This document shows positions 18,501-44,713 of a stretch of DNA of 64,000 bases, one piece after another. Position 1 is the stretch's first letter; each line of letters starts with the position of its first letter. The position numbers and the translations under genes are program-made. The notes under the pieces are model-generated. The model saw nothing but the letters and a program-made list of their open reading frames with translations. It had not been told where the DNA came from and made no database searches. Source of the DNA: a virus; IMG/VR virus record IMGVR_UViG_3300047994_000087, positions 1 through 64,000 of that record, one strand, 5' to 3'.

Positions 18501-20210
18501 CGCCCAGTAGAAGTAATTTGATGTTACTGTCGGAGTACCACCAGCTAACCAAGTAATTTTTCCAGTGTTGTATGCAACAGTGAAATCCGTTCCTTCCACA
18601 TAGGTTGTGCCACCATTCTTAATAGATGTGATTGGAGTCATCACATCAGCATGGGAAAGGGTGAATCCAAAAGTGCTTACAGGAGTGCTTGGAGTAAACA
18701 CTTCAGAACCGGAAGAGGTAGCAGTGTACGTTGTAGCATTAGGAGATGTGCTTACAAGAGTAATGAAGTTGTTGCTTCCCGTGTGGCTAGCAGTCAAGAA
18801 ACCATTTACGGTTGGGTCTGCATTAATTGCAGTGGCAAGATGCCCGGCTAAATTTGAGGCGTTAGTGTCTGGAGTTCCGCCTCCCACTGTTGTATAACTT
18901 GTTGTATGACTTCCACCAAGACCAGAGTTGTGCGTAACAAAAGAAATGGTGTGACCAGAAGCAAATGATCCAGATAGAGTCACAGTGCCGGTACTTGAGA
19001 CTAGTCCGACTGTGTGGGATTCACCAGTTACTGTTGTCTGTGTTCTCACTCCGGGGGTAAGATCGACAGCGTAAATTACTTGAGCTTGGTAGCTTGTGCC
19101 CGTAGCTGGTGCTATTCCTCCGCCAAGCCATTCAATGCCAGCATCATCTACAAGTTCATAATCAACGCCTTCTTCAGCAACATCTGTGCTAGAAGAGAAA
19201 GTAGTGCCGACCTGAGTTACAGAAACTACGCTATGAACGTGTCCTTGTCCTGAAGTAACATAAGGCGCAGGAAAGGTGTCCGTGTCACTGAGGCTTCCAC
19301 GTGACATAGGGATTGTGCCGGATTCAATGTCAGCATTTACTCTCTGCACTGACTGTATGGGCAGAGTTCCTACGTCATATACAAGCTGAGGTAGTGAAGC
19401 ATTAAAGGTAAGCGGGAAGTCAGTTGTAGCCTGTCCTGAAAGAGGACGCGCAATTGACAGGACGGTCTTTAGATTATCGTATCTGACACCATTTACGTAC
19501 CCTACGCCATTGTCGATGGTGCAGGAAATATTCTGCACGTTTGTGCCAGGTGGGTCAGTTAGTGTGATAGTCGGAACGGTGGTAGTGAATGAACCACTTT
19601 GTTCCTTAGTGCGCAGAGCAAGGATTGCTAAAATCTCGTCAAGGAAAGCGTTATTACTTGGTCTCTCGACTAACTGCCCATTGATGAACGTGGCAATAGG
19701 AATTGCGTTTGGATTATTACGAACATATTGAATGTTGTAAGCTCCAGCGTCAGCTGAAGGCACTCCATACGCTTCAGACCCCTGTGCCGGGTCATTGAGG
19801 GCCGGGTCATCAGTCGATTTTATAACTCGGGGAGTTACTTGAAGAGAAAGTGTTTCGGTACCAGTTCCTGTGAATGCATTCGCATCTGGAGCAGCTGGAG
19901 AAGAGTAAGCTCCAACGTTGTGCCACATTCCGAGAGCGTAAACTACACCGGCAGTGATGTTTACTTGCAGCCCTGGATTTAGGAAACCAATGGTGATGTT
20001 GCCACCATTGTAGAATTGACCTTCATTGAAAATCTTACTAGTGCTGGCTTCAACATTAGTCTGAATGATTCGTTGTAAGTCATTGAATTGCGCAGCTTCT
20101 ACCGGAGTCTTCGGATTGAAGAGCATCATGCGCCAAGGATAAGTGACACCACCCAAGTTCGAAGCTAGGGATAAGTCTGTGTAATAATCAGTAGGAGGAG
20201 TGTAAACCAC
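15510..20210 (-). CDS. Very large tail/adhesion protein, DUF4815-like N-terminus
   Basis: A 1566-aa structural protein. The first 250 residues resemble the DUF4815 region found at the start of large phage baseplate/adhesion proteins (YTDLSLASNLGG, then FNDLQRIIQTNVE). Repeats follow in which a V/I-x-x-G-x-x-Y-x-EG-x-D-Y/F segment leads to I-x-WL-x-GG (about 320-380 and 515-570). Between them lies one copy of the roughly 100-residue shared module (about 405-512; bases 18674-18995). The C-terminal part has Ig- or lectin-like stretches. GTG start with AAGGAG 8 bases upstream. It probably extends from the baseplate towards the host surface. Confidence 0.85.
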   Translation of the reverse strand: MVYTPPTDYYTDLSLASNLGGVTYPWRMMLFNPKTPVEAAQFNDLQRIIQTNVEASTSKIFNEGQFYNGGNITIGFLNPGLQVNITAGVVYALGMWHNVGAYSSPAAPDANAFTGTGTETLSLQVTPRVIKSTDDPALNDPAQGSEAYGVPSADAGAYNIQYVRNNPNAIPIATFINGQLVERPSNNAFLDEILAILALRTKEQSGSFTTTVPTITLTDPPGTNVQNISCTIDNGVGYVNGVRYDNLKTVLSIARPLSGQATTDFPLTFNASLPQLVYDVGTLPIQSVQRVNADIESGTIPMSRGSLSDTDTFPAPYVTSGQGHVHSVVSVTQVGTTFSSSTDVAEEGVDYELVDDAGIEWLGGGIAPATGTSYQAQVIYAVDLTPGVRTQTTVTGESHTVGLVSSTGTVTLSGSFASGHTISFVTHNSGLGGSHTTSYTTVGGGTPDTNASNLAGHLATAINADPTVNGFLTASHTGSNNFITLVSTSPNATTYTATSSGSEVFTPSTPVSTFGFTLSHADVMTPITSIKNGGTTYVEGTDFTVAYNTGKITWLAGGTPTVTSNYFYWAHTTEGDYVSRDSFVSALGNQLFDSTPTLTPTGLAVDYTSQISFDVVGGNQPVNSSQVNVDFSFSLPRIDVLAWGQDGILAILPGTPDANPTAAPISNFYLPICKFILPAEARSTQVVRENFQNQTLLTTDLRTMYQNIQNLLYDDAQFQLAANAQNQPTPTDKLGIFADNLSTPDLVDEGDPDFAGTFDFLSRTFSLPRTQTTQSPSFSSSDATNMAGTWVPTFTEAVSVQQSFASNARVINLYGAVNTRCQVTLSHTFVAQMVQDVNLTTVNKNTKLKVNNVKNAKLLANVTPTTPVAAQLGSSSSVPVTNPWFITKVATPTGWTDAVSDSTGNNPLNNATVLSTNTTTQNNAWATVTTNTQTLLTGNTPSGGTITCSGSVFTANEQSIQCTFNGEVVALTPTGSTAASTDSNFPGCVNADNNGNWTASFVIPPTVIPGSNQVEFYGHVGGSLPTSNRVVSYASVIYNASPNMEQVDITVTIPPKAPTVSGLSGTGIPIYALAQTLGLPSISKNSTQVENVYYGPYDEVVVEGYKPSFATWVIINKWAATSCAHVIASAIAESVFDGVTLTVDDLIAGLSVYAAYTELQTVVNGTVLSNIANAVNLSSTDIAANAALIIAQSGYFGFPQKDFMASITGTTDPLAQTFTPVNDGYLSSVDLFFAVLPANPVAVAISQVTSGVPTGPYLGTSWLQASSITSTTEATNFPMPKPIYLQGGTEYAFVVLTNDNAASIWTAQLGSKDVNSNLLITTNPATGVALESPDAVSWSVLAGVDLQFNINYAQFTNPTATVTLGTQDFGSPVCTFMFSAPFKELGDGTQVIFQYSTDAGNTWNTCTPTVELDLGFAQQTIQYRVVLTNSADGTLCPVLIDNPELIGFIYQASGAYLHRTFSLPSSSGRYTDVYVETSIPGGCSISPYVKLDGGSYVGPTTNNNPTGGMSLITADTLFINDTFTQLHYQYDSGSGDLHQTVKVKLVLASDQTFLTPMIRNVRVIES

Positions 20211-20222
20211 GTGAAAGACTCC

Positions 20223-20753
20223 TTAGTATTGAATGACTTCGAAGAAGTCATGCTGAGAACCGACTATTACTGGATAAGGGCGGCGGTATTCTAGGGTTTC
20301 CAGATCTCCGAAATCTGCAATATTTGCCGCAGGAAGGTAGCTGTCTGAACCATGTCCAGAAGTAGGCACCAGGTTTGTAGCGAACCCCAACTGTCGATAT
20401 GCCGTGATAGAAGGATCTATGCTGCCATCAAGAAGAGTTCCTTGAAGTAGAACAAATATGTCTCCACTCCAGGCAAGAACATCAGTTTGAGTAGTCAGCT
20501 CACTAAAGCTTCTTACCGTGTTGTCCGATCCAAGAATAGTGTATATTCCAGCGTCATCCTCTTTGACCCAACGCACAGTTACAGGAACTGCGGCAAAAGC
20601 GTCCGGGATAGAAGTTGTGGTGGGCACAGGCAAAGGAGGCGAAGTGTCATTGTCCCAAGGAACCAGGCCGCCGAAAATCAAGAAGGTAGACGCGCCGTTA
20701 GCGACTTTGAATCTGATAGCGTCCATCAAACGATGAAGGTTGGTCAATATCAT
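20223..20753 (-). CDS. Baseplate-associated hypothetical protein
   Basis: A 176-aa protein without a recognised family, placed between the tail protein I-like wedge gene and the giant DUF4815-like protein. The position makes it a likely adaptor or wedge component. AGG precedes the ATG, and the gap to the next gene is 12 bases. Confidence 0.65.
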   Translation of the reverse strand: MILTNLHRLMDAIRFKVANGASTFLIFGGLVPWDNDTSPPLPVPTTTSIPDAFAAVPVTVRWVKEDDAGIYTILGSDNTVRSFSELTTQTDVLAWSGDIFVLLQGTLLDGSIDPSITAYRQLGFATNLVPTSGHGSDSYLPAANIADFGDLETLEYRRPYPVIVGSQHDFFEVIQY

Positions 20754-20834
20754 ATGTGGGACACCTGGACATAAAGACAGAAGACTTGCCTTATCGTAAG
20801 CGCGAATAAATATGCGCTCTAAAATTCAAGAGTA

Positions 20835-22955
20835 TTACGGGGCTATCGACTGAATGATTGTGCAAGTTGGCAGGTCGTAGTACCAGGTTGTTGGAGGGTT
20901 CTGTCCGTCCAGGTCCCATGCGATGTTTTCTAGATCGATCCATGGCATGTTTTCGATAGACTCATATTTAAGAATTGCGAATCCCATGTTTGTAGTCTGG
21001 TTAGAGTACAGATATAGGTCGTGGGTAGCATCAAAACGATTCTGTGGATCTATTACAACGTAGTCATAGAAATAGGTAAATGTTAGGACTGATTCGTCTG
21101 AACCAGTTGGGTCATCGCCATTATAAAGAGCGATCAGGTTACCGTTTGCGTTGATTGCTCTAGATAGACCCCCAGTTACTTGATCTGTAGTTAGATAGTC
21201 CGCGACATGAGCCACGTTCAAGGTGATCTCATAAGGACTTCCCGATATGTTGGAAGCTGAGAAGAAAATGTGCAAGGTGTTTCCAAATGTTTGAGTTCCT
21301 CCAAGAGTAATGTCCTGAGACTCTTGGGTGTTGAGGGTAATATTGAGAGACTCGGTCGCCCCCATGCTCAATGATTCTGTGTATGTTGTGGTGTTAGCCG
21401 ATGTGGAAACCAAGGTTAGTGTTGAACCGATGATAGGCGGCACTGCTGTTACCCCTATTCCAGATAGGTTGCTGTCCCCGTTTATGGCAGCCGCAAGACC
21501 AGCAGCAACAGAGGTTAGCTTATCTCCATTAAGAATGGTGTACGTGACCGACTCTGTTCCTCCTACAAGCCCAGAGTCGTTGACCGTGAGTGTTATCACA
21601 TCACCGGGAGTGATAATTCCCCCGACTTCAGCTGTTGAATATCTAGTGATCAATGATCCTACGGACGATGTGAGCGTAGCTCCCCCGTTCACAGTAGTAG
21701 TGATCGTGGTCGGATATGTGGAGTACATGATTGTAATCACAGGCCCATTTGCAAAGGCCGTAATATTAGCCGCTTGCATGGTGGAGTCACTATTGATGAA
21801 TTGCGCGTAGGTATCTGCCATGTAATTGAATGCAGATTCAACCGTGTAGGTTACAACTTCTTGGCCGCCAGGTAAAGACGGCTCATACACTGTCACTGTT
21901 ATCACATCGCCAGGAGTGGCAGTTCCCCCCACTGTAACAGTAGGCTGTTGACTAACAGGCACAGTGGCTGCGACTGTAATTGTTGCTCCTATACTGGCAG
22001 AAGCCCACACTGTAGTAGGAATGACGTTGTTTATGTTATCTGTAACTCTCGTGAAAACAGCGTTCTCACTTTCCGAAATGCGCGGGTGCATTAAGCTGTC
22101 GCTGACAATTGTGCGCCCACTAAAAGCAAATGCATGATCCCTGGACTCTCTGATGTAGAGAGCGTCGGTCCATCCTAAACCACCCATCTGGTCAAACAGA
22201 GTGTGCACAGAATCGAAATAAACGCCATTGTCGAATCCAGGGAACTGGGTGTCTATGATGCCCGTGTCAATATTATGGACCCACGTTCCAGCTTGAGTCG
22301 ACTCAACTCCCTCATTGAAGTAGTTGCTGTCTACCTCCAAGAATTCCTGGTAGCCAGAAGGGTGAACGTTATTAAGCAACGCCAAAAGGTCGTTGAAGTT
22401 GACTATGTTTTGGGCCTGAAGTACTTTCACTACGTAGGTAAAGTGGGCATAGAAAACACCATCTCTGATGTAGCCTAACTTGGACTCGTCGAAACTCAGT
22501 ATGCCGTTGTCGCTCGCTGCGCCATCCATCAGAGTATCTAGGCTATCGAACATCAAGATCTTCTTTGCTGGTATGTCAATTTCAATTGGAGAGCCAACAA
22601 GCTGTCCAATGAATCTGTATAAACCTTCAGTACCTTTGTGCCCAGCCCACGACTTGGCTTCCCTGATGAATTCCACCAGAGGTATGTCTGTGACAACAGG
22701 AAGCCCCTCCCCCACTTCGGCTTGTAAAAGGTCTAGGTAGGGGGTGGTGTCTATGTCTTTAGTGTCCGGTAAATGACGGACATAGTAACGCTGTAGAGCA
22801 AGCAGAAATGCCAATACATATACATACGGGTCATTGTCATCCACGTACTGGCTCAATCCGACTGCATTAACTATTAGTGTAGTGAGAAGTGCAACATCGT
22901 TAGTAAACTCTTCTGATGTTGTGATTGTTTCAATATCTAACGCAAGTGTTGGCAC
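20835..22955 (-). CDS. Baseplate wedge protein (P2 gpI-like) with two inserted modules
   Basis: A 706-aa protein. The first 220 residues resemble the tail protein I family, with AGHKGTEGLYRFIGQLVGSP at about 104-123. The middle contains two tandem copies of the shared beta module (about 338-433 and 441-542; bases 21657-21944 and 21330-21635), each with GDVIT-LTV, GG-E-VTYT and an A-IN-D segment. The C-terminus returns to unique sequence. The GTG start lies just after the gp6/J-like gene's stop. gpI/gp7-type proteins link wedges to fibres; the insertions make this one about three times longer than P2 gpI. Confidence 0.8.
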   Translation of the reverse strand: MPTLALDIETITTSEEFTNDVALLTTLIVNAVGLSQYVDDNDPYVYVLAFLLALQRYYVRHLPDTKDIDTTPYLDLLQAEVGEGLPVVTDIPLVEFIREAKSWAGHKGTEGLYRFIGQLVGSPIEIDIPAKKILMFDSLDTLMDGAASDNGILSFDESKLGYIRDGVFYAHFTYVVKVLQAQNIVNFNDLLALLNNVHPSGYQEFLEVDSNYFNEGVESTQAGTWVHNIDTGIIDTQFPGFDNGVYFDSVHTLFDQMGGLGWTDALYIRESRDHAFAFSGRTIVSDSLMHPRISESENAVFTRVTDNINNVIPTTVWASASIGATITVAATVPVSQQPTVTVGGTATPGDVITVTVYEPSLPGGQEVVTYTVESAFNYMADTYAQFINSDSTMQAANITAFANGPVITIMYSTYPTTITTTVNGGATLTSSVGSLITRYSTAEVGGIITPGDVITLTVNDSGLVGGTESVTYTILNGDKLTSVAAGLAAAINGDSNLSGIGVTAVPPIIGSTLTLVSTSANTTTYTESLSMGATESLNITLNTQESQDITLGGTQTFGNTLHIFFSASNISGSPYEITLNVAHVADYLTTDQVTGGLSRAINANGNLIALYNGDDPTGSDESVLTFTYFYDYVVIDPQNRFDATHDLYLYSNQTTNMGFAILKYESIENMPWIDLENIAWDLDGQNPPTTWYYDLPTCTIIQSIAP

Positions 22956-24560
22956 TTAGGACACCACCGTTTGTGCAGTCATAGTCATGTTGGTCAACAC
23001 AACAATCATCTTACCATTGACCAAAACGTCAGGACCTGTGCTCTTGTAGTAGAGAGTGCATTTCTGATCTGACAGCCCTTCAACGGCAAATAGAAAGTTA
23101 CCGTTCGAGACCATAGAAGTTGCATCGCCAGAAAACAGCACGTTGTTGCTACTATCCTTAAGAACAGCATTAGTTAGGTCTGGATTAAGTATGACTGGTA
23201 TGGAAATGGCTCCCGCTGTGGAAAAGGCGAATGTGTCCACTGTTGTGTTTATGTTGCTGTATTCAATCCCATCTATTGCTTCAATGGCAGCAGACTCCTT
23301 CGACTCTCTAAGATTCTGGGCGATAGCCAACTGACTGAAGAAAGAACTGACCACCCCTGTTGCTGAATTGATCCCTAGGGAAGGGTCTCCAAACACTGCA
23401 TCGCTAACGCCTATATCAATTGTTTGCTGAGCTTCAACCACAATCGGGCCACTGACTACATACGTCATGCCGCTCATACCTTTCTGGTCGAGCACGTTTC
23501 CTACTTCAGTCTGTAGGTCACCTGTCAGTTCATAAGGGCTCTGGCCATATACCGTAACAAAGGTGTATCCATACTGGCCAAGCTTTTGTCCGCCAATAGC
23601 AGAGGCACTTTTAATGCCAGGGATGGCTCTTACTATTGCTGCCACGTCTTGCTCAGAAACTGCTCGATCCTGTGTGCCGTAGTATGCAGGAGCATTTTCT
23701 CTTATGGACTCCGTGGACTCTACGTCTGCTCCTCCTAGGGCGGAGGTCAAAGTGGTTCCTGTAAATGCGCCAGTGACAGTAGAGCCGCCTGAATCTCTGA
23801 TAACTGATTGAGGTCTAACGTTCTGACCACTGACAAATATATTGCCAGAGGCGCCCCCAGTAAGAATGGCCGTGACAAGGATTGTGTCCCCTGCTTGAGG
23901 GGTGTTGAGGCCGTTTAGAGGAACTCCAAACTCAACCGTCTGACCACCGACATCTTCATATACCTTGTATGAGTTAGCTTGAGGAACTTCAATGAACGTG
24001 TCTACAGCTGTCCATACTGTGTTATTCACGGATACTTGTATGTTGGCAGCGTTAACTGGCATTACAAGCTTTGCCCATGGAACGCCGGAAGCAGTAGTTG
24101 AGCTATTGTAGGGAGAGCCTTGGGTTAAAAGTACTTGTGTCGACGTAGTGTTGGGAGCTATGACAATAGGGTCTAAGTTCTGGAAGGTCAAAGAGTTAAT
24201 GACCCAACTACTGTTGACTGGAATGGTGAATCCGGTGTCGAAGGAAGGGAAAGAGAGCAACACAGAGACAGTAGCAGGACTTGCTTGTCCAGGAACATAG
24301 CCTAGTTCTTTCGCACGACGTATGACAGACTCGCGCATCATGGCCAAAGACAACATGGTTTCTGCTACCTGTTGGTCACAGAAGAAAGCGTTCATATCGT
24401 ACAAAGCAACGGCAGCTTTTAAAAATGCGTACCCAAGATCATTCTCAGTAAAGTCTGTCCACGCGCCGTTTGTGAAAGCTACAAGGGCGTTTTTGAGAGT
24501 GTTTAGGATCTGGTCCGGGTCTCTCTGTGTGTAATCTAGTACTGGAAGCAATACAGCCAT
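22956..24560 (-). CDS. Baseplate J / gp6-like wedge protein
   Basis: A 534-aa Baseplate_J family protein. Recognisable parts are the N-terminal helical region with ESVIRRAKELGYVPGQASPA (about 79-98), a central beta domain, and a segment with RENAPAYYGTQDRAVSEQDV (about 285-305). gp6 dimers form the inner ring of the contractile baseplate and trigger sheath contraction. It lies 15 bases after the gp25-like gene. Confidence 0.9.
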   Translation of the reverse strand: MAVLLPVLDYTQRDPDQILNTLKNALVAFTNGAWTDFTENDLGYAFLKAAVALYDMNAFFCDQQVAETMLSLAMMRESVIRRAKELGYVPGQASPATVSVLLSFPSFDTGFTIPVNSSWVINSLTFQNLDPIVIAPNTTSTQVLLTQGSPYNSSTTASGVPWAKLVMPVNAANIQVSVNNTVWTAVDTFIEVPQANSYKVYEDVGGQTVEFGVPLNGLNTPQAGDTILVTAILTGGASGNIFVSGQNVRPQSVIRDSGGSTVTGAFTGTTLTSALGGADVESTESIRENAPAYYGTQDRAVSEQDVAAIVRAIPGIKSASAIGGQKLGQYGYTFVTVYGQSPYELTGDLQTEVGNVLDQKGMSGMTYVVSGPIVVEAQQTIDIGVSDAVFGDPSLGINSATGVVSSFFSQLAIAQNLRESKESAAIEAIDGIEYSNINTTVDTFAFSTAGAISIPVILNPDLTNAVLKDSSNNVLFSGDATSMVSNGNFLFAVEGLSDQKCTLYYKSTGPDVLVNGKMIVVLTNMTMTAQTVVS

Positions 24561-24575
24561 GTGCGGGATTCCTGG

Positions 24576-25088
24576 TTAGCTTTGTGGGAACAGAGGTTGG
24601 CCACCAATAGTGAGTGTGCCGGGAGGGACCTTTATCTGGTCATTCATGGCCAAGGCGATCTTTATTTGCTGAGGCGCATTCGTTCCATTTATCGTGTACT
24701 GAATTACGAGCATGAGGTAGTTATTGTTGATGTTGGTGGCGTCAATGTTCACCTGACTGACAGTTATCTGAGGAACCCAAGCTGTCAGGGCAGTCTTAGT
24801 TGCGACAATAAGCTCAGTGTTTAGGATGTCTCGGTATGGCTGGAAGATCAAATAAGGCAAGGTTGACCCATAATCCGGCTGCCACAGTCTTCTCCCTACG
24901 GGAGTTGATAGGCAGATGTAGATGTCTTGGGCAACTTTAGCCGGTCCAGATCTAAGTACCCAAGTGTTTGAAATTATTTGAAGAGGAATGGCAAGGCCGG
25001 AACCCAGTTGCGCCGCAAGCTGGTTAGGAACTCCAGTAGTTGCGCGGGGGGTGAGAGGGGTTTGTCTTTGGAAATATTGAAAGCTCAT
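24576..25088 (-). CDS. gp25-like baseplate wedge protein (GPW/gp25 family)
   Basis: A 170-aa protein with the GPW/gp25 core: STPVGRRLWQPDYGSTLPYL followed by a helix and AL-x-x-WVPQI-x-V. In T4, P2 and R-type pyocins this subunit connects the wedge to the first sheath ring and is needed for its initiation. It is somewhat longer than T4 gp25, with an extra N-terminal 50 residues and a proline-rich C-terminus. Confidence 0.9.
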   Translation of the reverse strand: MSFQYFQRQTPLTPRATTGVPNQLAAQLGSGLAIPLQIISNTWVLRSGPAKVAQDIYICLSTPVGRRLWQPDYGSTLPYLIFQPYRDILNTELIVATKTALTAWVPQITVSQVNIDATNINNNYLMLVIQYTINGTNAPQQIKIALAMNDQIKVPPGTLTIGGQPLFPQS

Positions 25089-25090
25089 AC

Positions 25091-25417
25091 TTATGTGCCC
25101 CCATATACAAAGCCAATCAAGTTATTGATTGTTATAGGGTCAGTAGGGATGGCTAAGTCCATGTCTGTAACTACCTCTGTGAGAGGGTCGTCGATGTTGT
25201 TAGCCAGGGCGATGACTCGCCAGTAAGAGCAGTCAGAAAACCAAATCCAGGCAATGAGATCTAAGCGTCCAGCTTCAGAGTTTTTGACTTTGTGCCACTG
25301 TACGTTCGACCCATCTGCTGCAACTGGGTACTGAAATTCGATATAAGGCAACCCTGATTGATACTGAGTTCCATCAGGTGCTGTGAGTGTGAGACCAAGC
25401 GAAGTGTAAACGCGCAT
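25091..25417 (-). CDS. gp53-like baseplate wedge/LysM-region protein
   Basis: A 108-aa protein resembling the T4 gp53 family: GRLDLIAWIWFSDCSYWRVI at about 50-69 and NNIDDPLTEVVTDMDLAIP towards the C-terminus, a LysM-like pattern seen in hub-wedge connectors. The ATG overlaps the upstream stop (TAATG). Its neighbours, gp25-like and hub genes, support the assignment. Confidence 0.75.
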   Translation of the reverse strand: MRVYTSLGLTLTAPDGTQYQSGLPYIEFQYPVAADGSNVQWHKVKNSEAGRLDLIAWIWFSDCSYWRVIALANNIDDPLTEVVTDMDLAIPTDPITINNLIGFVYGGT

Positions 25418-25980
25418 TAGGCAAAGCTCCCATTGGAACTCTCGCCACCGGAGATCACAGTGGGACCGCCCGTGCCACCAGACGAACTTTCGAAGCTTAA
25501 ATTTTCGTATGTCGTCATGGCATCGCCAGCAAAATCTGACAAGTCTTGCGCCATTAACTCTATGCCTACGAATGAAAGACTAGCTGTTCCTGTGAATGAA
25601 TCACCTTGTTTGTCATACGTTCCTTCTTGTCCAGAGCCACAGCTGACGTTAGTGAGTAGACACGCATAGTGAGAGAAGACAATTCCAGACCCCCATGTGA
25701 CGTAGCAGATAGGAGGAGGCATAGTGCCACTTTGCTGAGGAAACGTTATAGCAGTCAGCGCTTTCTGAAGCTTCGCAATCTTCTGAGCGTTCCAGGAACC
25801 TGAATCGTGTGCGAACAGATCTAGATTTACTGTTATGTCTATAGCCGAAGAACTTCTGAATGTATAAATGGGAGAAGAACGATTGATGATTTCTTGTGCT
25901 GCGAAGTTCGCTGACTTCCTCCAGGTAATCCCGTTCTTAATTGCTGAGGTGCGTAAGCTAAACCCAGCTGTTGTGGTCAT
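25417..25980 (-). CDS. Putative tail hub/tube-adaptor protein
   Basis: From ATG 25980 (MTTTAGFSLR) a 187-aa protein; a GTG 10 codons upstream is possible, but AAGG stands before the ATG. The content is beta-rich, and the C-terminus is Gly/Ser low-complexity. No family can be named with confidence. By order (spike tip, this gene, gp53-like) it may be the hub-proximal tube adaptor of contractile systems (gp48/gp54 or CIS tube-like). Confidence 0.6.
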   Translation of the reverse strand: MTTTAGFSLRTSAIKNGITWRKSANFAAQEIINRSSPIYTFRSSSAIDITVNLDLFAHDSGSWNAQKIAKLQKALTAITFPQQSGTMPPPICYVTWGSGIVFSHYACLLTNVSCGSGQEGTYDKQGDSFTGTASLSFVGIELMAQDLSDFAGDAMTTYENLSFESSSGGTGGPTVISGGESSNGSFA

Positions 25981-26093
25981 TTCAAATAGGACCTTGTCCT
26001 GATTAACCACAATAGATCACCACATTAAGAGACACCTACCACAAGGATAAGAGCGGGTGGGGATCTGGGTTATTTTTGAGGAGGTTTATTTGA

Positions 26094-26390
26094 CTAAGGC
26101 AGACAGAACGTGTCTTCGTCGCCCAACAAAACTGTGCAGCCACAGCTTGTTGCGTCTCCTATGTGGACAAGCGGAATGCCGTTGATAAATGTGTCAGGAG
26201 ACCCTTGTATAATTACGCCCGCATCATGTGGAGATGGTCCATGAGGAGCAATCAGATCTCCAACTACTGACACTGTCAATCCATCACCATATTGACCTAA
26301 TCCACCTGGACCTAAGATCACGCCAGTTCCGGTGGCGCCAGGTCCTCCACCGCATTGACTTTCTCCAACTATAGCTATAGGAAGAGCCAT
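26094..26390 (-). CDS. PAAR-domain spike tip protein
   Basis: A 98-aa PAAR protein: Gly-rich beta repeats with GDLIAPHGPSPHDAGVIIQG and DTFINGIPLVHIGDATSCG. The His and Cys residues in APHG, LVHIGD and SCGC are the expected zinc ligands. PAAR cones cap the gp5/VgrG spike in phages and type VI secretion. The start overlaps the previous stop by one base, which couples it to the Ser-rich hub protein. Confidence 0.9.
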   Translation of the reverse strand: MALPIAIVGESQCGGGPGATGTGVILGPGGLGQYGDGLTVSVVGDLIAPHGPSPHDAGVIIQGSPDTFINGIPLVHIGDATSCGCTVLLGDEDTFCLP

Positions 26391-27655
26391 TATGGAAGTG
26401 CTACTAGAGCGGTATTCACAGCATCTACGTCAACTTTAATGGAAGTAGCAAGAGCTGCTATGGTCGAATTGGCAGTGGATAAAGTGCTCACCGCATTGGT
26501 GAAATCCGAGTTACTAAGAATGGTTCCGATATCTGTCATAACTGCCTTTAGCTGCGACACAGTTGCAGTGGAGCCAGGTTGACTTAATTGAGCACCAAGG
26601 TCTGCAAGGACCAGGGCTGTGTTCAGAACTCCCATTATGGTGTTTACCGCATCATCATTGTTGGACACAGTCTGAGAAAAGTTAGGCCCGTTAACGTTAG
26701 TAGGAGTTCCGGGCGTATAGGTCTCAGAGCCCCCAGAAGAGGAGCCGGAATAGGTGGTTACTATTCCTGATGTGCTTACTATTTGCACGACTCCAGAAGA
26801 TGGGTTAGTAGCAACCAAAAAACCATTAACTACAGGATCTGAATTTATTGAGTTGAACAGTCCGGTTGCGAACTTGGCTGCGGTTGTGTCCCCAGGAACA
26901 GATAGATAAGTAACGTTGTGTGTTCCACCAGAAAGACTAGCATCAGTAACCGTTAGAGTAACTGTTTGTCCAGATGCAAATCCGCTCCCGGCAACAGTTA
27001 TCTTGGTAGTGCTAGAAGCCAAAAACGCTTTGGTCAAAACGCTTGCGAGATTTTCCAGATTAGTGTGTACGTCTGCATAGGGCGAGATGCCCCCTGAAAA
27101 TAAAGCTGTTGTGGAAAGACTACTAAAGGTCTGGCTTGCTCCAACTAGTTGCTGTATAGCAGCTGTTTGAGTTTGTTGACCACTTTGTAAATCTCCAACT
27201 GATCCACCCCCACTGCTTCCACCGCTCACCATTCCAGATAGACTACTTGCAAGAGAAGAAAACTGTCCTAGACTGCTAGTCAGACTAGTGATGGAGCCAA
27301 GCGAACTTGTGATAGAAGAAATGGACGACAGTGAAGACGTGATTGAACTGAGTCCAGATGTTAAGCTAGAAAGACCGCCGAAGGCTGATGTAACAGAACT
27401 CATCATGTCATTTAGACCTAACATTGAGGCAATACCACTTGGACCACCTGCCAAAAGGTTTTTCACCATACCAATGTGCTGCATGGTCGAACTAAGTAGT
27501 TTGAGACTTGCCGCAGCACTATGAGTTACTGAAGGAGCACTGACTGTGTGTTCTACGCCAGCTGTATTGCCTATGACCGTGCCAGCAGTGCTCTGAATGT
27601 CCTCTGCTGCATCGAAGACGCAACCTCCGGTGACTGATCTTACGTTTACTGTCAT
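26390..27655 (-). CDS. Spike/hub-associated protein with Ser-rich repeat and shared module
   Basis: A 421-aa protein. Residues about 85-145 are a run of seven-residue Ser/Leu repeats (SSITSSLSSISSITSSLG), probably a helical bundle or trimeric coil. Residues about 217-320 (bases 26696-27007) are one copy of the shared beta module (GSGFASGQTVTLTV, INSDPVVNGFL, VSTSG). The last 90 residues are Ala/Thr-rich helices. It lies between the beta-solenoid and PAAR genes with short overlaps on both sides, so a spike-complex role is likely, but no family is recognised. Confidence 0.7.
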   Translation of the reverse strand: MTVNVRSVTGGCVFDAAEDIQSTAGTVIGNTAGVEHTVSAPSVTHSAAASLKLLSSTMQHIGMVKNLLAGGPSGIASMLGLNDMMSSVTSAFGGLSSLTSGLSSITSSLSSISSITSSLGSITSLTSSLGQFSSLASSLSGMVSGGSSGGGSVGDLQSGQQTQTAAIQQLVGASQTFSSLSTTALFSGGISPYADVHTNLENLASVLTKAFLASSTTKITVAGSGFASGQTVTLTVTDASLSGGTHNVTYLSVPGDTTAAKFATGLFNSINSDPVVNGFLVATNPSSGVVQIVSTSGIVTTYSGSSSGGSETYTPGTPTNVNGPNFSQTVSNNDDAVNTIMGVLNTALVLADLGAQLSQPGSTATVSQLKAVMTDIGTILSNSDFTNAVSTLSTANSTIAALATSIKVDVDAVNTALVALP

Positions 27656-30321: not shown

Positions 30322-30322
30322 A

Positions 30323-31633: not shown

Positions 31634-31687
31634 TCAACCAGAATAATGGTCATTAATCCAATGCTATAGAAGTAAGTGACTTTTGGA

Positions 31688-32242: not shown

Positions 32243-32260
32243 AGAATCTTCCTAAGATTA

Positions 32261-32290
32261 AATATACCAATATCCTCAGTATACTACCAA
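32261..32290 (-). promoter_or_regulatory. Putative sigma70 promoter of the secreted moron
   Basis: On the minus strand TTGGTA (32285-32290) and TATATT (32261-32266) are separated by 18 bases in a very AT-rich gap between the tape-measure and moron genes. The predicted start lies about 12 bases before the moron ATG, just upstream of AGGAAG. An independent promoter inside a late operon is typical of morons. Confidence 0.45.
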
Positions 32291-32339
32291 GTACACATAT
32301 TTTAAGCTTTGTAATAATATAATAGCAATGTCGCTACTG

Positions 32340-35144: not shown

Positions 35145-35151
35145 CTATGTC

Positions 35152-35307
35152 TTATTGCTCCAACATGTTTGGTGGTGCCATTGCTTTTGCTTCTTCTTTC
35201 TTAGCCTTAATGAGCATCTCGTACCACTCACGAAGCTCTACGAAAGTGCAAGTATCAGTATAGCCTGCATCAAATCCTTTGCCTAAATAGGCAAGGATGA
35301 ATTGCAT
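35152..35307 (-). CDS. Second tail-assembly chaperone ORF, probably made by frameshift
   Basis: A 51-codon frame beginning at ATG 35307 and ending 7 bases before the tape-measure start; the product is charged and helical (FVELREWYEMLIKAKKEEAK). No ribosome-binding site precedes the ATG, but the same frame stays open upstream through the last 49 bases of the chaperone gene at 35324 (up to a stop at 35371-35373). The position between tube and tape measure and the overlapping +1 frame match the frameshifted chaperone pair of many tailed phages (lambda G/GT). The real product is therefore probably a C-terminally extended form of the upstream protein. Confidence 0.6.
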   Translation of the reverse strand: MQFILAYLGKGFDAGYTDTCTFVELREWYEMLIKAKKEEAKAMAPPNMLEQ

Positions 35308-35323
35308 GTGTTTGATTATCTGA

Positions 35324-36124
35324 CTATCTTCTGGGTGGGGTGCGAAAGAAATTGGCGTTAACGCCGATCCTCACATTGTTAGCCTTTCCACAATTTGCAT
35401 GATCACAGTCGACTGATACAGCCTGCACTACCCCAATACTTTGTTGGTCAATCTGATAGGACAGCTCGTCCATGTCCATGGGAGAAAGGTTATCAATGAA
35501 CTCCATTTTCTTCTTGAAGAAAGCCTGTGGCTCGCCATCTATTTCATCTATCAGCTGGGCATATCGAACGTACAGTCGGTCAACGAACTCGTTATGAATC
35601 ATCCCAAGCTTAGATAGGTCTTCCATTTTTCGAGTAATAGCCTTCTCGTCTTTGAGTCTAATTGCGTGCACCTTAACAACGTTTTTGCTCAGCTTGATCT
35701 CCAGTGAGGAAGGATTGTAATCTTTCTTCTCATGGGCATTGATAATACTCAGGTCTGAAAGCTTCAATGTTTTTTTTGTTTCCTGCTGGCAGCTGATGCA
35801 GTCAAACGCAATCTCATAGTCTTCCCCAAAACTCATTATGCGGATGATGAATAGAATGGCGTTAACGTCATCCAGGAGAAGATCATCTACTTCTACCTTA
35901 GGCTCTACCACCAACCGCTCAATCATGTTGTAGTACGTTTGGTAATTGTCGCCGCCTTTACCTGAAAGATACCTAGTATCTCCAGTGACAATGGGTCTGA
36001 TCTTTACAGAGTCTCCGTTTATCAGTTGCATCTTACCGTCAGCATAGCTGGCTTGGTTATACGCCTTACCTTCGCTGGGAAGCTTAAAGGTGTTTTCTTT
36101 CAAACTTAAACCGAGATTGCTCAT
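35324..36124 (-). CDS. Tail assembly chaperone / gp26-like protein
   Basis: A 266-aa protein related in plan to the T4 gp26-type baseplate/tail chaperone family: an N-terminal stretch with NTFKLPSEGKAYN, a middle with CISCQQETKK and a late CDHANC, together a possible zinc site, and charged helices between. It lies between the tail tube and the tape measure. Its end (FFRTPPRR) lies in a 49-base region also open in the +1 frame. GGAG precedes the ATG. Confidence 0.75.
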   Translation of the reverse strand: MSNLGLSLKENTFKLPSEGKAYNQASYADGKMQLINGDSVKIRPIVTGDTRYLSGKGGDNYQTYYNMIERLVVEPKVEVDDLLLDDVNAILFIIRIMSFGEDYEIAFDCISCQQETKKTLKLSDLSIINAHEKKDYNPSSLEIKLSKNVVKVHAIRLKDEKAITRKMEDLSKLGMIHNEFVDRLYVRYAQLIDEIDGEPQAFFKKKMEFIDNLSPMDMDELSYQIDQQSIGVVQAVSVDCDHANCGKANNVRIGVNANFFRTPPRR

Positions 36125-36157
36125 TTGGGGTCTCCATTAAATATCACTACTAACAAT

Positions 36158-36181
36158 AATGGCCCTCCGAAGAGAGCCATT
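36158..36181 (-). terminator. Hairpin with TTCG loop between tube and chaperone genes
   Basis: Arms AATGGCCCTC (36158-36167) and GAGAGCCATT (36172-36181) pair over 10 bp with one G-T wobble. The minus-strand loop is TTCG, an extra-stable tetraloop. Only a short, broken T-run follows, so it may partly terminate the transcript and lower expression of tape measure and hub relative to sheath and tube. Confidence 0.6.
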
Positions 36182-36206
36182 AAAATATGTCGATTACACG
36201 AACAAC

Positions 36207-36770
36207 CTAAGCAGCTGTATTCAGACCAGTAAAGGTTGATCCAATCTGACCACCTGTTCCTGTGCCGCCATCTGGGTAGGCTCTATCGCAGGAGAATTGC
36301 ATTCTAAGCATAGAAGGTTCCTGCGATGCATAATCCAATCCATCTGGAGATGGGTGGTTCAAGGGGAAGCATCCATAGCAGTTCCATGTTCTTACAGAGT
36401 TGCCTTTCTGGTCAAGTTGGTCGATGATGATCTGTCTCTTGTAGTCAGACGCATAACCCATTTGACCTGTACGAGGATCGTATCCTTGGGAAGCCCAAGT
36501 TTCTAGGTCGTTGAACACGCTAGGAGCGATAACGTCATAGATTTCAACGGTCAGGTCGCCGCAAGTCGGAGCGCCCATACCCTTAACTTCTTCGTTCATG
36601 TGGTGCATCGTAACTTTGCCATGACTAATGACAGGTACGTTGCAGGACTTCGCTAAAAGCGTTACGTCCAGTCCACCGATAGTGATCGCCCAACACTGCT
36701 TTCTAACAGCTTCATAGTTAGTGCCAGCGCCTTGCGCCCACATGTACTGAGTTCCTAAAGTGTTACCCAT
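36207..36770 (-). CDS. Tail tube protein
   Basis: A 187-aa protein following the sheath gene, the canonical position for the tube (gp19-like). It contains the beta-rich pattern expected (ITIGGLDVTLLAKSCNVP, GDLTVEIYDVIAPSVF, LRMQFSCDRAYPDGG). The C-terminus is Gly/Thr-rich. GGAGACC stands before the ATG. The tube stacks inside the sheath on the hub. Confidence 0.82.
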   Translation of the reverse strand: MGNTLGTQYMWAQGAGTNYEAVRKQCWAITIGGLDVTLLAKSCNVPVISHGKVTMHHMNEEVKGMGAPTCGDLTVEIYDVIAPSVFNDLETWASQGYDPRTGQMGYASDYKRQIIIDQLDQKGNSVRTWNCYGCFPLNHPSPDGLDYASQEPSMLRMQFSCDRAYPDGGTGTGGQIGSTFTGLNTAA

Positions 36771-36789
36771 GATTTAAGGTCTCCTGGTC

Positions 36790-38580
36790 TTACTGACCGA
36801 TTAAACTGCCAGCTATAAGGTCTTCGTTGATAGCGACACCGAACTCAGTGATTTCAAATGTCACAACAATTTGTTCTGCAAATTTCAGAGGTGCAATAAC
36901 ACAGACAGCAGTCATCTGGTTGTTATTTACGTACTGAGGAATGTTGGTTTTGGAGTCGCAGTAGAACTGGGCACCATAGATCTTTCCTTGAGCGGCCAGA
37001 GTGTTCAGGTAGGGCTGAACAAGAGCAACTGCCTGGTTCCAAGTAGATTGCTCGTTTGGCTGGAACAGAAGTGCGTACAGAGCAGTCGTAATAGACTTCT
37101 CTACACGAAGCAACATACGTCTTGCGCCGACTCTGTCGAGTGACGAGGCAATAAGCGTGGCTGTCTTCTGCCCAAGAATTTGAATTCCTAGGCCATTCAG
37201 ATTACCGATAGGATTGATTCTATTGGCACCAAGGAATTGTCTGTCTCCCAGGCTCAAGTGAACGTTAGTATCTAGACAGTTCTGAAGCAGTCCCATCTTA
37301 GGACCGGCAGGAGCTTGCCAGAAGTCGATACCTGCTAATACCTGCGCAATAGCAGCTGTAGGAGGCATTTGATCAATGTCACCAGTGTTGGGGTTGGTAG
37401 CTGTGTACCAAGGGAAGTAGATAGAGGCGTAGTTGGAATCAACCACTCCGTATGCACTGTAAGCGCCAGTAGCATTGGCCCAGTCAGCAACTGTCTGAAC
37501 AGTAGTGTCTGACGGAGGGTCAAGAGGAGTCATGATGTCTTGACGCTGATTGGCAAGCTCAATAAGTGCTTGTCTAACACCAGCAGAGCTAACACCCGGA
37601 ACCATAACTTCATTGACTGCCACACCTGTTCCGAACAGTTGCAGGCCGTCAGAGGTTCCGCCAATGGTGTCACCAATGTAGTTAGCATCAGTCAGATCGT
37701 CGATACCGTCATCACCACCGCTCATGTCGTAAACACCAGCAACAGGGAATGATCCAAATGCAGAAACTGGTGCAAGATACTGAGATCCTGCAAGAGTTGC
37801 TACCATGTTGTCCAAGGTAAGACCGTAGAAGGTTTCCAGAACTTTTATTCTGATAGTGACATCAGATTGGTTCTGCACGGTAATCTGTGTTTGCAGAGTG
37901 AAGGTGGAGAAGTAGTTGAAGGTAGCGGTGTAGTGAATCGTACTAGCGGACGCTCCACTGATAGTGAAAGCAATAGCTCCGGTTGCATAGTTGATGGTTC
38001 CAGCGCTGTACGTTGAGGCATTGGAATTGAATACCAGGTTACCCGCGCCGTCATCAGTAGCAATAGTGCCAGTACCGGTGAGACTCAATCTTAAAGTGTT
38101 AGGAACAACAGGCACACTAGCCAGTGACATAGTGATGCTGTTGGTGCCACTAGTAAGGGTCTTAGCTGTGCTGCCTAGAGTGCCAGCAAGTTGACCGCCA
38201 TAACTGATAGGGAAAGATAATTGATCGAAGAATGTTCCAGTTTCGTTGGCAGTTAGAGTTCCAGGGGAACCGGAGCCAATAAGAGTGATTGAGGCCGAGG
38301 CAGTTGCATCGCCATTAGCGATACGAACTACCCATGCAGTGTTACCACCAGCGTTGAAGAATTCACGAGCAACCAGAGTTCCTGGATGAAGGTCATCTTC
38401 CAATCCGAAAAACGTTTCAAATTGGGTGCGGGTAGTGCATAATGTTAATGTATCTGTAGGGCCTTTTGTGGCCGTTATGACTAACCCAAGGATGGTGTCA
38501 CTTAGATTAGCGATGTACTGCGACAGATCTAACTCTGTGAAGTAGACTCCAGGGGTATTGACTAATGTTGCGTTCGCCAT
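36790..38580 (-). CDS. Tail sheath protein with an inserted beta module
   Basis: A 596-aa sheath. The N-terminus is typical (NTPGVYFTELDLSQY; GPTDTLTLCTTRTQFETFFG; FFNAGGNTAWVVRI) and the C-terminal half carries the conserved sheath core (AAIAQVLAGIDFWQAPAGPK, NRINPIGNLNGLGIQILGQK). Residues about 131-225 are an inserted surface domain ending AGTINYATGAIAFTI, which resembles an insert in the major capsid protein. AGGAG precedes the ATG. Confidence 0.92.
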   Translation of the reverse strand: MANATLVNTPGVYFTELDLSQYIANLSDTILGLVITATKGPTDTLTLCTTRTQFETFFGLEDDLHPGTLVAREFFNAGGNTAWVVRIANGDATASASITLIGSGSPGTLTANETGTFFDQLSFPISYGGQLAGTLGSTAKTLTSGTNSITMSLASVPVVPNTLRLSLTGTGTIATDDGAGNLVFNSNASTYSAGTINYATGAIAFTISGASASTIHYTATFNYFSTFTLQTQITVQNQSDVTIRIKVLETFYGLTLDNMVATLAGSQYLAPVSAFGSFPVAGVYDMSGGDDGIDDLTDANYIGDTIGGTSDGLQLFGTGVAVNEVMVPGVSSAGVRQALIELANQRQDIMTPLDPPSDTTVQTVADWANATGAYSAYGVVDSNYASIYFPWYTATNPNTGDIDQMPPTAAIAQVLAGIDFWQAPAGPKMGLLQNCLDTNVHLSLGDRQFLGANRINPIGNLNGLGIQILGQKTATLIASSLDRVGARRMLLRVEKSITTALYALLFQPNEQSTWNQAVALVQPYLNTLAAQGKIYGAQFYCDSKTNIPQYVNNNQMTAVCVIAPLKFAEQIVVTFEITEFGVAINEDLIAGSLIGQ

Positions 38581-38677
38581 TTGCGGAGGCTCCTACTAAG
38601 CACGGATCACTTTCCTTGCTATTGTCGAGTCGTTCCTAATGGCGTCGTGAAAATGCGTGAGTTCTAATAACTCGTAT

Positions 38678-39727
38678 CTAAGATTCAGATGGTGGATCTG
38701 AATCTGGAATAGTCGGTAGGATGGTGATATCGTCTAGCAATATAGGCGATCCATTCATCATCTGCTCGTATTTAACTACAATGGATTCGATAGGCGGAAT
38801 GTTAATGGACTTGGCCCACAGTGAGAACACATTCAAACGTTGAGTGCTCTTCAGCCATATGACCGCACCGGTATCAGTGTTTACGTTATACGCGCTTGCA
38901 GGACCGCCATCCCTCAGTATCGGCCACGTGTAGGAAGTGGATTCAACAGTGTCAGTGAACGATGGAATCACTGTGTCTAGAGTTTTATAAATGTCTGAGA
39001 ACCAAGCTTCTCTTTCGAAGAAGTCACGGTCTTTGTATTTCTGAGTGTATGCAGTGAGGATGTACTCAACTTTAACGTGTCGGGCTAGTGTACGATTGTA
39101 CTCACCTGCCACTGACTTATTAACAGTACTTCCTATTGTCAGTATTTCAGTGTTGGACCCTTGTGCGTAGTCATAGCTAGTTGGGTTTAGAGAAGGAGTC
39201 ACTAACTTGAGCACAGCGCCTGTAGAGTATGCAGTAACTTGATTGCTTGCTACCGGGTCGGCATTGATCTGTGCTGCGATACTTAGAGCTAATGTGGGGA
39301 TATCTATGTCAGTCTCCAACACTGTGTACGAGACTGTTTGTGTCAGGGTGTCGCTCAGTACAAACGCAGCACTCGACATGACTATACTTATTATATCGCC
39401 TGTAGTTATTGTGCCGGACAGTGTGATAGGAGTGATGTTTGTGTTGGGGTCTATCGCGCCTTGCTGAAAGCGCCCCATAGGCCACCCTCTATCTCCTTGA
39501 GGAAGGTTGGAGAAGTCAGTGCGCTCGACAGTGCCATTTCTCCAAACACACACTCCAGGAATACCCACGGTGTTATTAGGATTGAGAGTGTTGTTAGCTG
39601 CATTGGCTGCTATGGCTGCGTTTGATAGAACAGAACGCGCCACTTCAGGAGCACCCCAAGCCACTGTATAGTTTGGGAAAAGAGTTTTGATATGCCCAAG
39701 CATAGCCACATCGACATAAGCAATCAT
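38678..39727 (-). CDS. Neck/tail-completion protein with inserted shared module
   Basis: A 349-aa protein upstream of the sheath gene, so probably a tail terminator or neck protein. The unique parts are an N-terminal IAYVDVAMLGHIKTLFPN and a C-terminal WLKSTQRLNVFSLWAKSI region. Residues about 98-200 (bases 39128-39436) are one copy of the shared beta module (ITTGDIISIVM, VSYTVLETD, AAQINADPVA). It overlaps the next gene by 4 bases. The family of the unique part is not recognised. Confidence 0.7.
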   Translation of the reverse strand: MIAYVDVAMLGHIKTLFPNYTVAWGAPEVARSVLSNAAIAANAANNTLNPNNTVGIPGVCVWRNGTVERTDFSNLPQGDRGWPMGRFQQGAIDPNTNITPITLSGTITTGDIISIVMSSAAFVLSDTLTQTVSYTVLETDIDIPTLALSIAAQINADPVASNQVTAYSTGAVLKLVTPSLNPTSYDYAQGSNTEILTIGSTVNKSVAGEYNRTLARHVKVEYILTAYTQKYKDRDFFEREAWFSDIYKTLDTVIPSFTDTVESTSYTWPILRDGGPASAYNVNTDTGAVIWLKSTQRLNVFSLWAKSINIPPIESIVVKYEQMMNGSPILLDDITILPTIPDSDPPSES

Positions 39728-40131
39728 GTCATCACTCCCTTAAACTTGTAGGCCACTTTGCTCAGAGCTGCATAAGCGAACGTTTCAGTAATACGAATAT
39801 TAAATATGTTGCCATCGGGTGATTTCACAACTACTTGATCATTCACTTGTAGTTTTGCTAGGGTCGTGATTATCAACTCGGAGGTAACGTCCTTAAGTTG
39901 AATGAAGTCGCTCAGAATCAGACCTTCCATAGGTTGACTACAAAGGATCTTGCACTTGCCTGTAGCAACGTTACTAGGGTCGTAGTCATGGGCGTCATCA
40001 AGTTCAGAATAAAGATTCTCAACGAGGACAGCACGATACACGTCTGCATTGAACCCATATAGATGCAGTGCATTAGTGAGGACCATTCGTAGGTGGGCAG
40101 GTACTTCCTGGCCGAGGTCAAGAACTGGCAT
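39724..40131 (-). CDS. Putative head-tail connector protein
   Basis: A 135-aa protein from ATG 40131, which overlaps the preceding stop (TGATG). No named family; size and order fit one of the small head-completion or connector proteins. Translationally coupled on both sides. Confidence 0.65.
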   Translation of the reverse strand: MPVLDLGQEVPAHLRMVLTNALHLYGFNADVYRAVLVENLYSELDDAHDYDPSNVATGKCKILCSQPMEGLILSDFIQLKDVTSELIITTLAKLQVNDQVVVKSPDGNIFNIRITETFAYAALSKVAYKFKGVMT

Positions 40132-41219
40132 CAGGGGCGAACTGCCTCCCACCACTTGTTGGAGGCGTAGAGTTCTTTAAATCCTTCATCGATCTCTCGC
40201 TGTGCTTCCTGCACTAAGCTGTTTGCATCTGTAGCAATTGGCAGATCGTTGTATGTGAAAGCTCTTCGTGAGCGGGAAAGAGAAAGCAGGAACTTGCCAG
40301 ACAATATTTTCAATAGTGAACGACTGTACAGAGAGGAATTTTCAATTCCAACCACTTCTACTTCTGTAATAATTCCTGAGTTGTTGGTAGTTATCACTTT
40401 CTCGTAGTTTTTGTACATAGCTTTTACGTCGATAAAACCAGTCTCACTGGTATACAGATAGGGGAACTTAGATTCTGGTGGGCAGCGGTATTCCCAAATG
40501 TAAGTACGAGGAGTGACCAGACGATTAGGGTCAGAGTAGTCTGTGTAATAATCTGATCGGACAAGCGCTTGTGAAGAGAACAGGGAAGTGGAGAACATAG
40601 GCAACACGCTTGTAACATCCAGAGGAGGCTCTCCTGGAGTACTAGGAATCGTTGTGATGACAGGAGTGTTGAAGGTGTATACTTCAGAGCCATTGGTCGA
40701 CGCACAAGCGTATGAAGTAGCGTTGCCTGATGTGCTCACAAGCGTAATTACCGCACCAGCAGCCGTAGCAGTTAAGAAGCTGTTTACTGTTGTGTCGGCA
40801 TTTATTGCAGCGGCCAGATGGGGAGCTAATGCAGTAGCGCTTGCGTCTCCAGACACTGTGGTGTAAACGGTGTTGTGAGGACTGCTATCTAATTTACCGT
40901 CAGTAGTTCCGAATGTTATTGTTTCGCCGCTGGCAAAGCCCGACCCACTGATTGTTAATGTTCCAGTGCTGTAGGTTACTATTGGAGTGTAATAGGTGTT
41001 GTTTGGATCATAGGTGAAGTCATATACGTTTGAAGGTAATACTTCAATTGAGAATTGCTTAGTGGGTGGACAAAAACCGGTGAATGTGTCGATCTCAGGC
41101 TCAAGAAGAACCCATAACGCTGTGAGATTAAAACCAATGTCTTGAAGTCCATTAGCACCCAGAAGTAGATGCTGTCCATTACGCACGCAGAGATAATAGG
41201 CAAGCTTGCTCAGTAACAT
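40131..41219 (-). CDS. Neck protein with inserted shared module
   Basis: A 362-aa protein in the neck cluster. The N-terminal 80 and C-terminal 150 residues are unique and contain NKWWEAVRP at the end. Residues about 83-190 (bases 40650-40973) are a clear copy of the shared beta module (TLTISGSGFASGETITFGTT, HLAAAINADTTVNSFLTA, ITLVSTSGNATSY). GGAG lies about 10 bases before the ATG. Probably a gp13/gp14-type connector, but this rests on order only. Confidence 0.7.
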   Translation of the reverse strand: MLLSKLAYYLCVRNGQHLLLGANGLQDIGFNLTALWVLLEPEIDTFTGFCPPTKQFSIEVLPSNVYDFTYDPNNTYYTPIVTYSTGTLTISGSGFASGETITFGTTDGKLDSSPHNTVYTTVSGDASATALAPHLAAAINADTTVNSFLTATAAGAVITLVSTSGNATSYACASTNGSEVYTFNTPVITTIPSTPGEPPLDVTSVLPMFSTSLFSSQALVRSDYYTDYSDPNRLVTPRTYIWEYRCPPESKFPYLYTSETGFIDVKAMYKNYEKVITTNNSGIITEVEVVGIENSSLYSRSLLKILSGKFLLSLSRSRRAFTYNDLPIATDANSLVQEAQREIDEGFKELYASNKWWEAVRP

Positions 41220-44677: not shown

Positions 44678-44713
44678 TTTGGGTTTCCTCTCACTTAAAA
44701 GTGAATACGTGAA

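What the first reader, a model, noticed from the sequence alone, without database searches (positions are those of the whole stretch)
18674..40973. One ~100-residue beta module reused six times in five different virion proteins
Seen directly: a segment of about 95-108 residues recurs at bases 18674-18995 (giant tail protein), 21330-21635 and 21657-21944 (wedge protein, tandem), 26696-27007 (spike-associated), 39128-39436 and 40650-40973 (two neck proteins). Shared landmarks in order are G-x-ASG/TPGD-x-I/V-T-x-T, GG-x-x-x-VTYT-V, a helix A-x-LA-x-x-IN-x-D, and ITLVSTS-x-N-x-T-x-Y. The host proteins are otherwise unrelated. This suggests a mobile structural domain spread by recombination within one phage, perhaps for decorating the virion or binding glycans.
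Basis: partly seen in the sequence, partly recalled or inferred. Interest (0 to 1): 0.78.

Follow-up and report, generated by a model that had tools for sequence, protein, structure and literature searches.

The report
Sheath-type add-on domain multiplied across virion
A large uncultivated phage carries six (perhaps seven) diverged copies of one roughly 100-residue domain in five different virion proteins; the domain has the fold of the outward-facing extension domain of phage tail sheaths, most other phages sampled carry it once, and a few have multiplied it across head, neck, sheath and tail proteins.

Summary
Six copies lie at the stated places; a profile of any five finds the sixth at 38-94 bits, against at most 12.6 for the best of 1000 shuffles. 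A weaker seventh lies in the wedge protein at 21129-21317. No further copy exists in the 146.7 kb record. AlphaFold gives a confident b3-a-b4 domain (pLDDT 90.6). Its best solved matches are tail sheaths (A-1(L), PhiTE, Milano, 7-7-1). A sequence profile independently puts four reference sheath domains (residues about 98-192) at the top of 1,035 phage ORFs; for Milano this is the published sheath extension domain. In one survey all 36 other contigs with a match had exactly one, nearly all in a sheath-sized ORF. A few phages multiplied it: 9 copies in 5 proteins, 7 in 4, 5 in 3. The window phage has 6-7 in 5, none detected in its own sheath. Four of its copies group together (94/84), which fits spread within the lineage, but synonymous sites are saturated, so this is old. 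Position between blocks conserved in relatives is shown only for the giant tail protein. Glycan binding has no support here; a projecting, bracing role is the best inference.

The parts
18674..18995 (-). copy m1, residues 406-512 of the giant tail protein
   Evidence: lies between blocks conserved in EF24C
21657..21944 (-). copy m2a, residues 338-433 of the wedge-position protein, first of a tandem
   Evidence: same topology in model
21330..21635 (-). copy m2b, residues 441-542 of the wedge-position protein
   Evidence: confident part of model
21129..21317 (-). degenerate seventh copy directly after the tandem (weak)
   Evidence: E 1.8e-6, i-E 0.048; structure not confident
26696..27007 (-). 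copy m3, residues 217-320 of a 421-aa tail protein of unknown role
39128..39436 (-). copy m4, residues 98-200 of the neck-position protein directly upstream of the sheath gene
40650..40973 (-). copy m5, residues 83-190 of a second neck-position protein
   Evidence: structure model pLDDT 90.6
15510..20210 (-). host protein: giant tail protein, homologue of the Herelleviridae adsorption-associated tail protein
   Evidence: DUF4815 E 1e-71; phrog_877 E 5.9e-145; profile match over its length
20835..22955 (-). host protein at the position of EF24C ORF039 (wedge by position)
   Evidence: gene order; no detectable sequence match
26390..27655 (-). host protein of m3, unknown role next to baseplate spike/hub genes
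   Evidence: no family
38678..39727 (-). host protein of m4, terminator-like by position only
   Evidence: adjacent to sheath gene; no family
40131..41219 (-). host protein of m5, adaptor-like by position only
   Evidence: gene order; no family
36790..38580 (-). tail sheath of this phage; no copy of the module detected in it
   Evidence: phrog_23 E 1.2e-60; no module hit

Best explanation
The segments are copies of one folded add-on domain (b3-a-b4) of the type that forms the outward-facing extension domain of many phage tail sheaths. In this phage lineage the domain was copied long ago into five other virion proteins (giant tail protein, wedge-position protein, a 421-aa tail protein, two neck-position proteins), probably mostly from a source inside the lineage, and the copies then diverged. 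Mechanism, inferred: each copy folds on its own and projects from its host protein, leaving the host core intact; if the host proteins form rings as neck and baseplate proteins usually do, the copies are shown as symmetrical sets of knobs that brace neighbouring subunits or hold fibres and decoration proteins. Shown here: the repetition, the fold, the relation to sheath domains, and the position between conserved blocks in the giant tail protein. Inferred: direction of copying, outward exposure, bracing role.
For: Leave-one-out statistics. Confident fold; best solved matches are sheath proteins 8kee, 9cba, 8foy, 9hz7, again 8kee for the tandem model. Extended profile ranks four reference sheaths first among 1,035 ORFs at residues 98-192; Milano extension domain is 91-203 (PMC10811340). 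Giant tail protein: match to EF24C on both sides of the module, profile match better with it cut out. Four window copies one group, 94/84; window label 3 changes against mean 5.7, 2 of 300 shuffles as low. Subfamily motif absent from viral contigs and genomes. Other phages with several copies.
Against: Function is not shown. The group of four is not starred and the wedge copies are unresolved. PF17481 does not match the window copies. The module is absent from this phage's own sheath, so the source within the genome is not seen. Insertion could be checked by comparison for one host protein only. Sampling of other contigs used a motif of the family.
Confidence: 0.55

Rival explanations
1. Each copy was acquired independently by exchange with other phages, and the likeness among window copies reflects a shared donor pool rather than copying within the genome.
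For: The domain is widespread and found in different protein classes of unrelated phages; the wedge copies are not tied to the others in the tree.
Against: Four copies group together and the m1/m3/m5 motif was found nowhere else.
Confidence: 0.25
2. The copies are ancient parts of their host proteins, inherited in place, and phages without them have lost them.
For: In three other multi-copy phages (G001, G002, G004) copies group by host protein, not by phage (4 changes against 7.6 in shuffles, 0 of 300). A protein directly upstream of the sheath carries the module both here and in G002.
Against: The EF24C homologue of the giant protein lacks it. Most other contigs surveyed have one copy, in a sheath-sized ORF. 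Window copies group with each other rather than with neck copies of other phages.
Confidence: 0.12
3. The module binds host-surface glycans and each copy adds weak adhesion, as proposed for phage Ig-like domains.
For: Middle domain of an LPMO (CbpD 7sqx) and flagellin are among weaker fold matches; domains 2 and 3 of the related GbpA are needed for binding the bacterial surface (PMC3257281).
Against: No tryptophan in any copy and few conserved exposed candidates; no lectin or CBM match; two copies sit in neck-position proteins, far from the host contact at first adsorption.
Confidence: 0.2

Closest known systems
Tail sheath extension domain (Milano gp20 SED; Pfam PF17481 Phage_sheath_domII)
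   Same: Fold, sequence signature and length at residues about 98-192 of sheaths
   Different: Here in five non-sheath proteins, absent from the own sheath, not matched by PF17481
Phage Ig-like domains (Fraser et al. 2006, cited in PMC9230969)
   Same: Promiscuous add-on domain in several virion proteins
   Different: Different fold: central helix, no Ig family match
Nozzle / tail tubular protein B domain of short-tailed phages
   Same: Predicted structures contain a domain of this fold (TMq 0.67); P-SCSP1u 8i4m
   Different: Short-tailed phages; sequence relation not tested
Flagellin outer domain and GbpA/CbpD domain 2
   Same: Moderate fold resemblance (TMq 0.54 and 0.58)
   Different: No sequence match; Flagellin_IN has no hit
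BACON tandem repeats of crAss-like phages (PMC6949934)
   Same: Beta domain multiplied in phage structural protein
   Different: Tandem in one protein; other family (title and abstract read only)

Membership tests
Phage_sheath_domII (PF17481) / sheath extension domain | Same fold | tested here: met
   Sheaths are the top solved matches, E 5e-4, TMq 0.55-0.64
Phage_sheath_domII (PF17481) / sheath extension domain | Match to the PF17481 model over its cut-off | tested here: not met
   No match in the window record at E 1; contig sheaths match below the cut-off
Phage_sheath_domII (PF17481) / sheath extension domain | Sequence relation to sheath domains by profile | tested here: met
   Extended profile: four reference sheaths first of 1,035 ORFs (E 1e-5 to 0.0035); six-copy profile alone: A-1(L) E 0.0042, PhiTE 0.016
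Phage_sheath_domII (PF17481) / sheath extension domain | Lies inside a sheath protein | tested here: not met
   None in the sheath 36790-38580
Flagellin_IN (PF07196) | Match to the model | tested here: not met
   No match at E 10
Phage Ig-like domains | All-beta Ig sandwich and Ig family match | tested here: not met
   Central helix at residues 46-59; no Ig hit
Herelleviridae adsorption-associated tail protein (host of m1) | DUF4815 and full-length homology | tested here: met
   PF16075 E 1e-71; profile match over 25-1562
Tail terminator / neck adaptor (hosts of m4, m5) | Homology to known neck proteins | tested here: inconclusive
   No match to Herelleviridae neck proteins or phrog_13532 members; only gene position supports it

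The most novel reading that the evidence does not exclude
In a few phage lineages one add-on domain has become a common interface: diverged copies on neck, wedge and tail proteins all contact the same partner (one decoration or fibre protein, or one host polymer), so that the virion surface is organised around a single repeated contact domain.
Probability: 0.12. Interest if true: 0.75.

Novelty: new variant of a known kind. Interest (0 to 1): 0.52.

Why it matters
The sheath extension domain is usually treated as a part of the sheath. Here the same kind of domain is found in a major head protein, neck-position proteins, a tandem-repeat protein, the wedge-position protein and the giant tail protein, and the Pfam and PHROGs scans did not label it there. 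A profile of it would help annotate unknown virion proteins. The multi-copy phages also give a testable case of how large phages enlarge their virion proteins: by reusing one domain within a genome.

Tried and rejected
Relatives of the phage were sought with the m5 neck protein, sheath, giant tail protein, DNA polymerase and major head protein in viral contigs and with the wedge protein in genomes: none confirmed. Single copies against phage records, plasmids and PDB sequences gave only chance-level hits. Chance through Thr/Ser/Gly-rich composition was rejected by shuffles. A LysM reading suggested by a weak PDB sequence hit (Ecp6, E 0.0095) was rejected: only short stretches match and the predicted fold is mostly beta. 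Flagellin_IN was rejected as family. Homology of the window neck proteins to phrog_13532 members or to Herelleviridae neck proteins was not detectable. The Providencia genome match to the subfamily motif is chance, in a frame full of stops. Recent duplication was rejected for m1/m5: four-fold sites agree in 13 of 40.

Full report
Setting. The window is the first 64 kb of a 146,741-base virus record of a contractile-tailed phage. On the minus strand lie the major head protein (43163-44677), neck-position genes, sheath (36790-38580), tube, hub and baseplate genes. From the baseplate-J gene onward the gene order resembles Enterococcus phage EF24C ORF038-041. The giant tail protein is a homologue of EF24C's adsorption-associated tail protein, and 20223-20753 matches the neighbouring ORF040 family.

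Is the repeat real? All six segments are in frame at the stated places. Profiles of five copies find the sixth at 37.7-94.4 bits, while the best of 1000 shuffles of each copy reaches 12.6 bits at most. Outside the module the five proteins share no family. A seventh, degenerate copy follows the tandem in the wedge-position protein, though its model is not confident. No other copy was found in the record. The tandem copies also share a 45-base stretch at 80% identity, 306 bases apart, against 47% over the whole copies; this hints at partial conversion between them and was not tested further.

What is it? AlphaFold on the six copies gives a confident domain, pLDDT 90.6, with order b-b-b-a-b-b-b-b. 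The best solved matches are tail sheath proteins of A-1(L), PhiTE, Milano and 7-7-1, with a short-tailed phage tail protein (8i4m), flagellin FliC and the LPMO CbpD further down. Predicted viral structures add tail tubular protein B and several unnamed proteins. A model led by the wedge tandem again hits the A-1(L) sheath first. Sequence agrees independently: among 1,035 ORFs of named phages, the extended profile puts four sheath proteins first, each at residues about 98-192; the profile of the six window copies alone also ranks the A-1(L) and PhiTE sheaths near the top. For Milano the published sheath extension domain is residues 91-203 (PMC10811340). Pfam's sheath domain II model covers the same region in one contig sheath (L023) but does not match the window copies. 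I therefore call the module a relative of that domain, not a member of PF17481.

How is it spread elsewhere? Viral contigs were picked by the helix motif LAAAINAD, so they are biased towards the family; 102 of 119 loci have the module by an iterated profile. In a survey of 42 contigs over 30 kb, 36 matched, each exactly once, nearly all in a sheath-sized ORF. In another set G002 has 9 copies in 5 proteins (tandem protein, 243-aa protein, sheath, and proteins matching phrog_13532 and phrog_14539), G001 7 in 4, G004 5 in 3, G003 and G013 2 in 2 (host proteins). L028 is a major head protein with the module near residues 235-298. Multi-copy phages are thus a minority of this sample. By BLAST the window phage shares no virion protein with G001-G005 or G013 apart from the module.

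How did it get there? In the giant tail protein the match to EF24C covers 29-397 and again from 533, with the module between; cutting it out improves the profile match from 3.5e-34 to 1.2e-37. A neighbouring unit (about 516-576) resembles 318-383, so the extra stretch is more than the module alone. In a tree of 32 copies, giant, m5, m3 and m4 form one group (94/84); the two wedge copies are unresolved, and one clade of all six is not rejected (p 0.21). Window copies cluster more than shuffled labels (2 of 300 as low), while copies of the other multi-copy phages cluster by host protein, not by phage; since those phages share host proteins, that is partly expected. The motif of m1, m3 and m5 was found nowhere else. 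Synonymous sites are saturated. Together: old spread within this lineage, in place since, is the best reading; ongoing mobility is not supported.

What does it do? Not shown. In sheaths, extra domains lie away from the tube and are thought to stabilise the particle or aid adhesion (PMC9230969). In A-1(L) an insertion domain of the wedge protein holds a fibre in one conformer and fits the hub in another (PMC10966104); whether it has this fold was not tested. No copy has a tryptophan. I infer a projecting, bracing role in ring-forming proteins, with weak surface binding as the rival.

Limits. No close relatives were found, so presence or absence of each copy could not be tested; the record may be incomplete; models rest on six to ten sequences; neck roles rest on gene order; the contig sample was selected by a motif of the family itself; no library of predicted cellular structures was available.

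Noticed in passing
window 15510-20210 (residues 318-383 and 516-576) and 36790-38580 (residues about 150-230): A second short unit with motif 'EGxDYxV..NTGKITWL' occurs twice in the giant tail protein, and the sheath insert has a similar 'INYATGAIAF' stretch; it may be another reused module.
   Followed up: partly
L012 35159-36559, L014 19979-23908, L015 34791-35879, L016 34345-37404: The gene after baseplate J varies from 362 to 1309 residues among Herelleviridae phages; the same position in the window holds the tandem modules, so it looks like a site of domain build-up.
   Followed up: partly
L028 732-1997: A major head protein (phrog_247, E 5.3e-86) with the module near residues 235-298, which would place it on a capsid surface.
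   Followed up: partly
L007, record positions 102486-104009 (minus strand): Protein with a long run of 'SSLGSSLWSSLESSL' repeats; its C-terminal part has a relative in the unrelated multi-copy phage G001 at 44330-46006.
   Followed up: no
window 57076-59814: Ribonucleotide reductase large chain with a LAGLIDADG domain inside, probably an intein.
   Followed up: no
window 61917-63263: Phage integrase with arm-binding domain in a 147 kb contractile-tailed phage, which would suggest an integrating life style.
   Followed up: no
window 21583-21627 and 21889-21933: 45-base direct repeat at 80% identity, spacing 306 bases, at the starts of the two tandem modules, far above their overall 47% DNA identity.
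   Followed up: no
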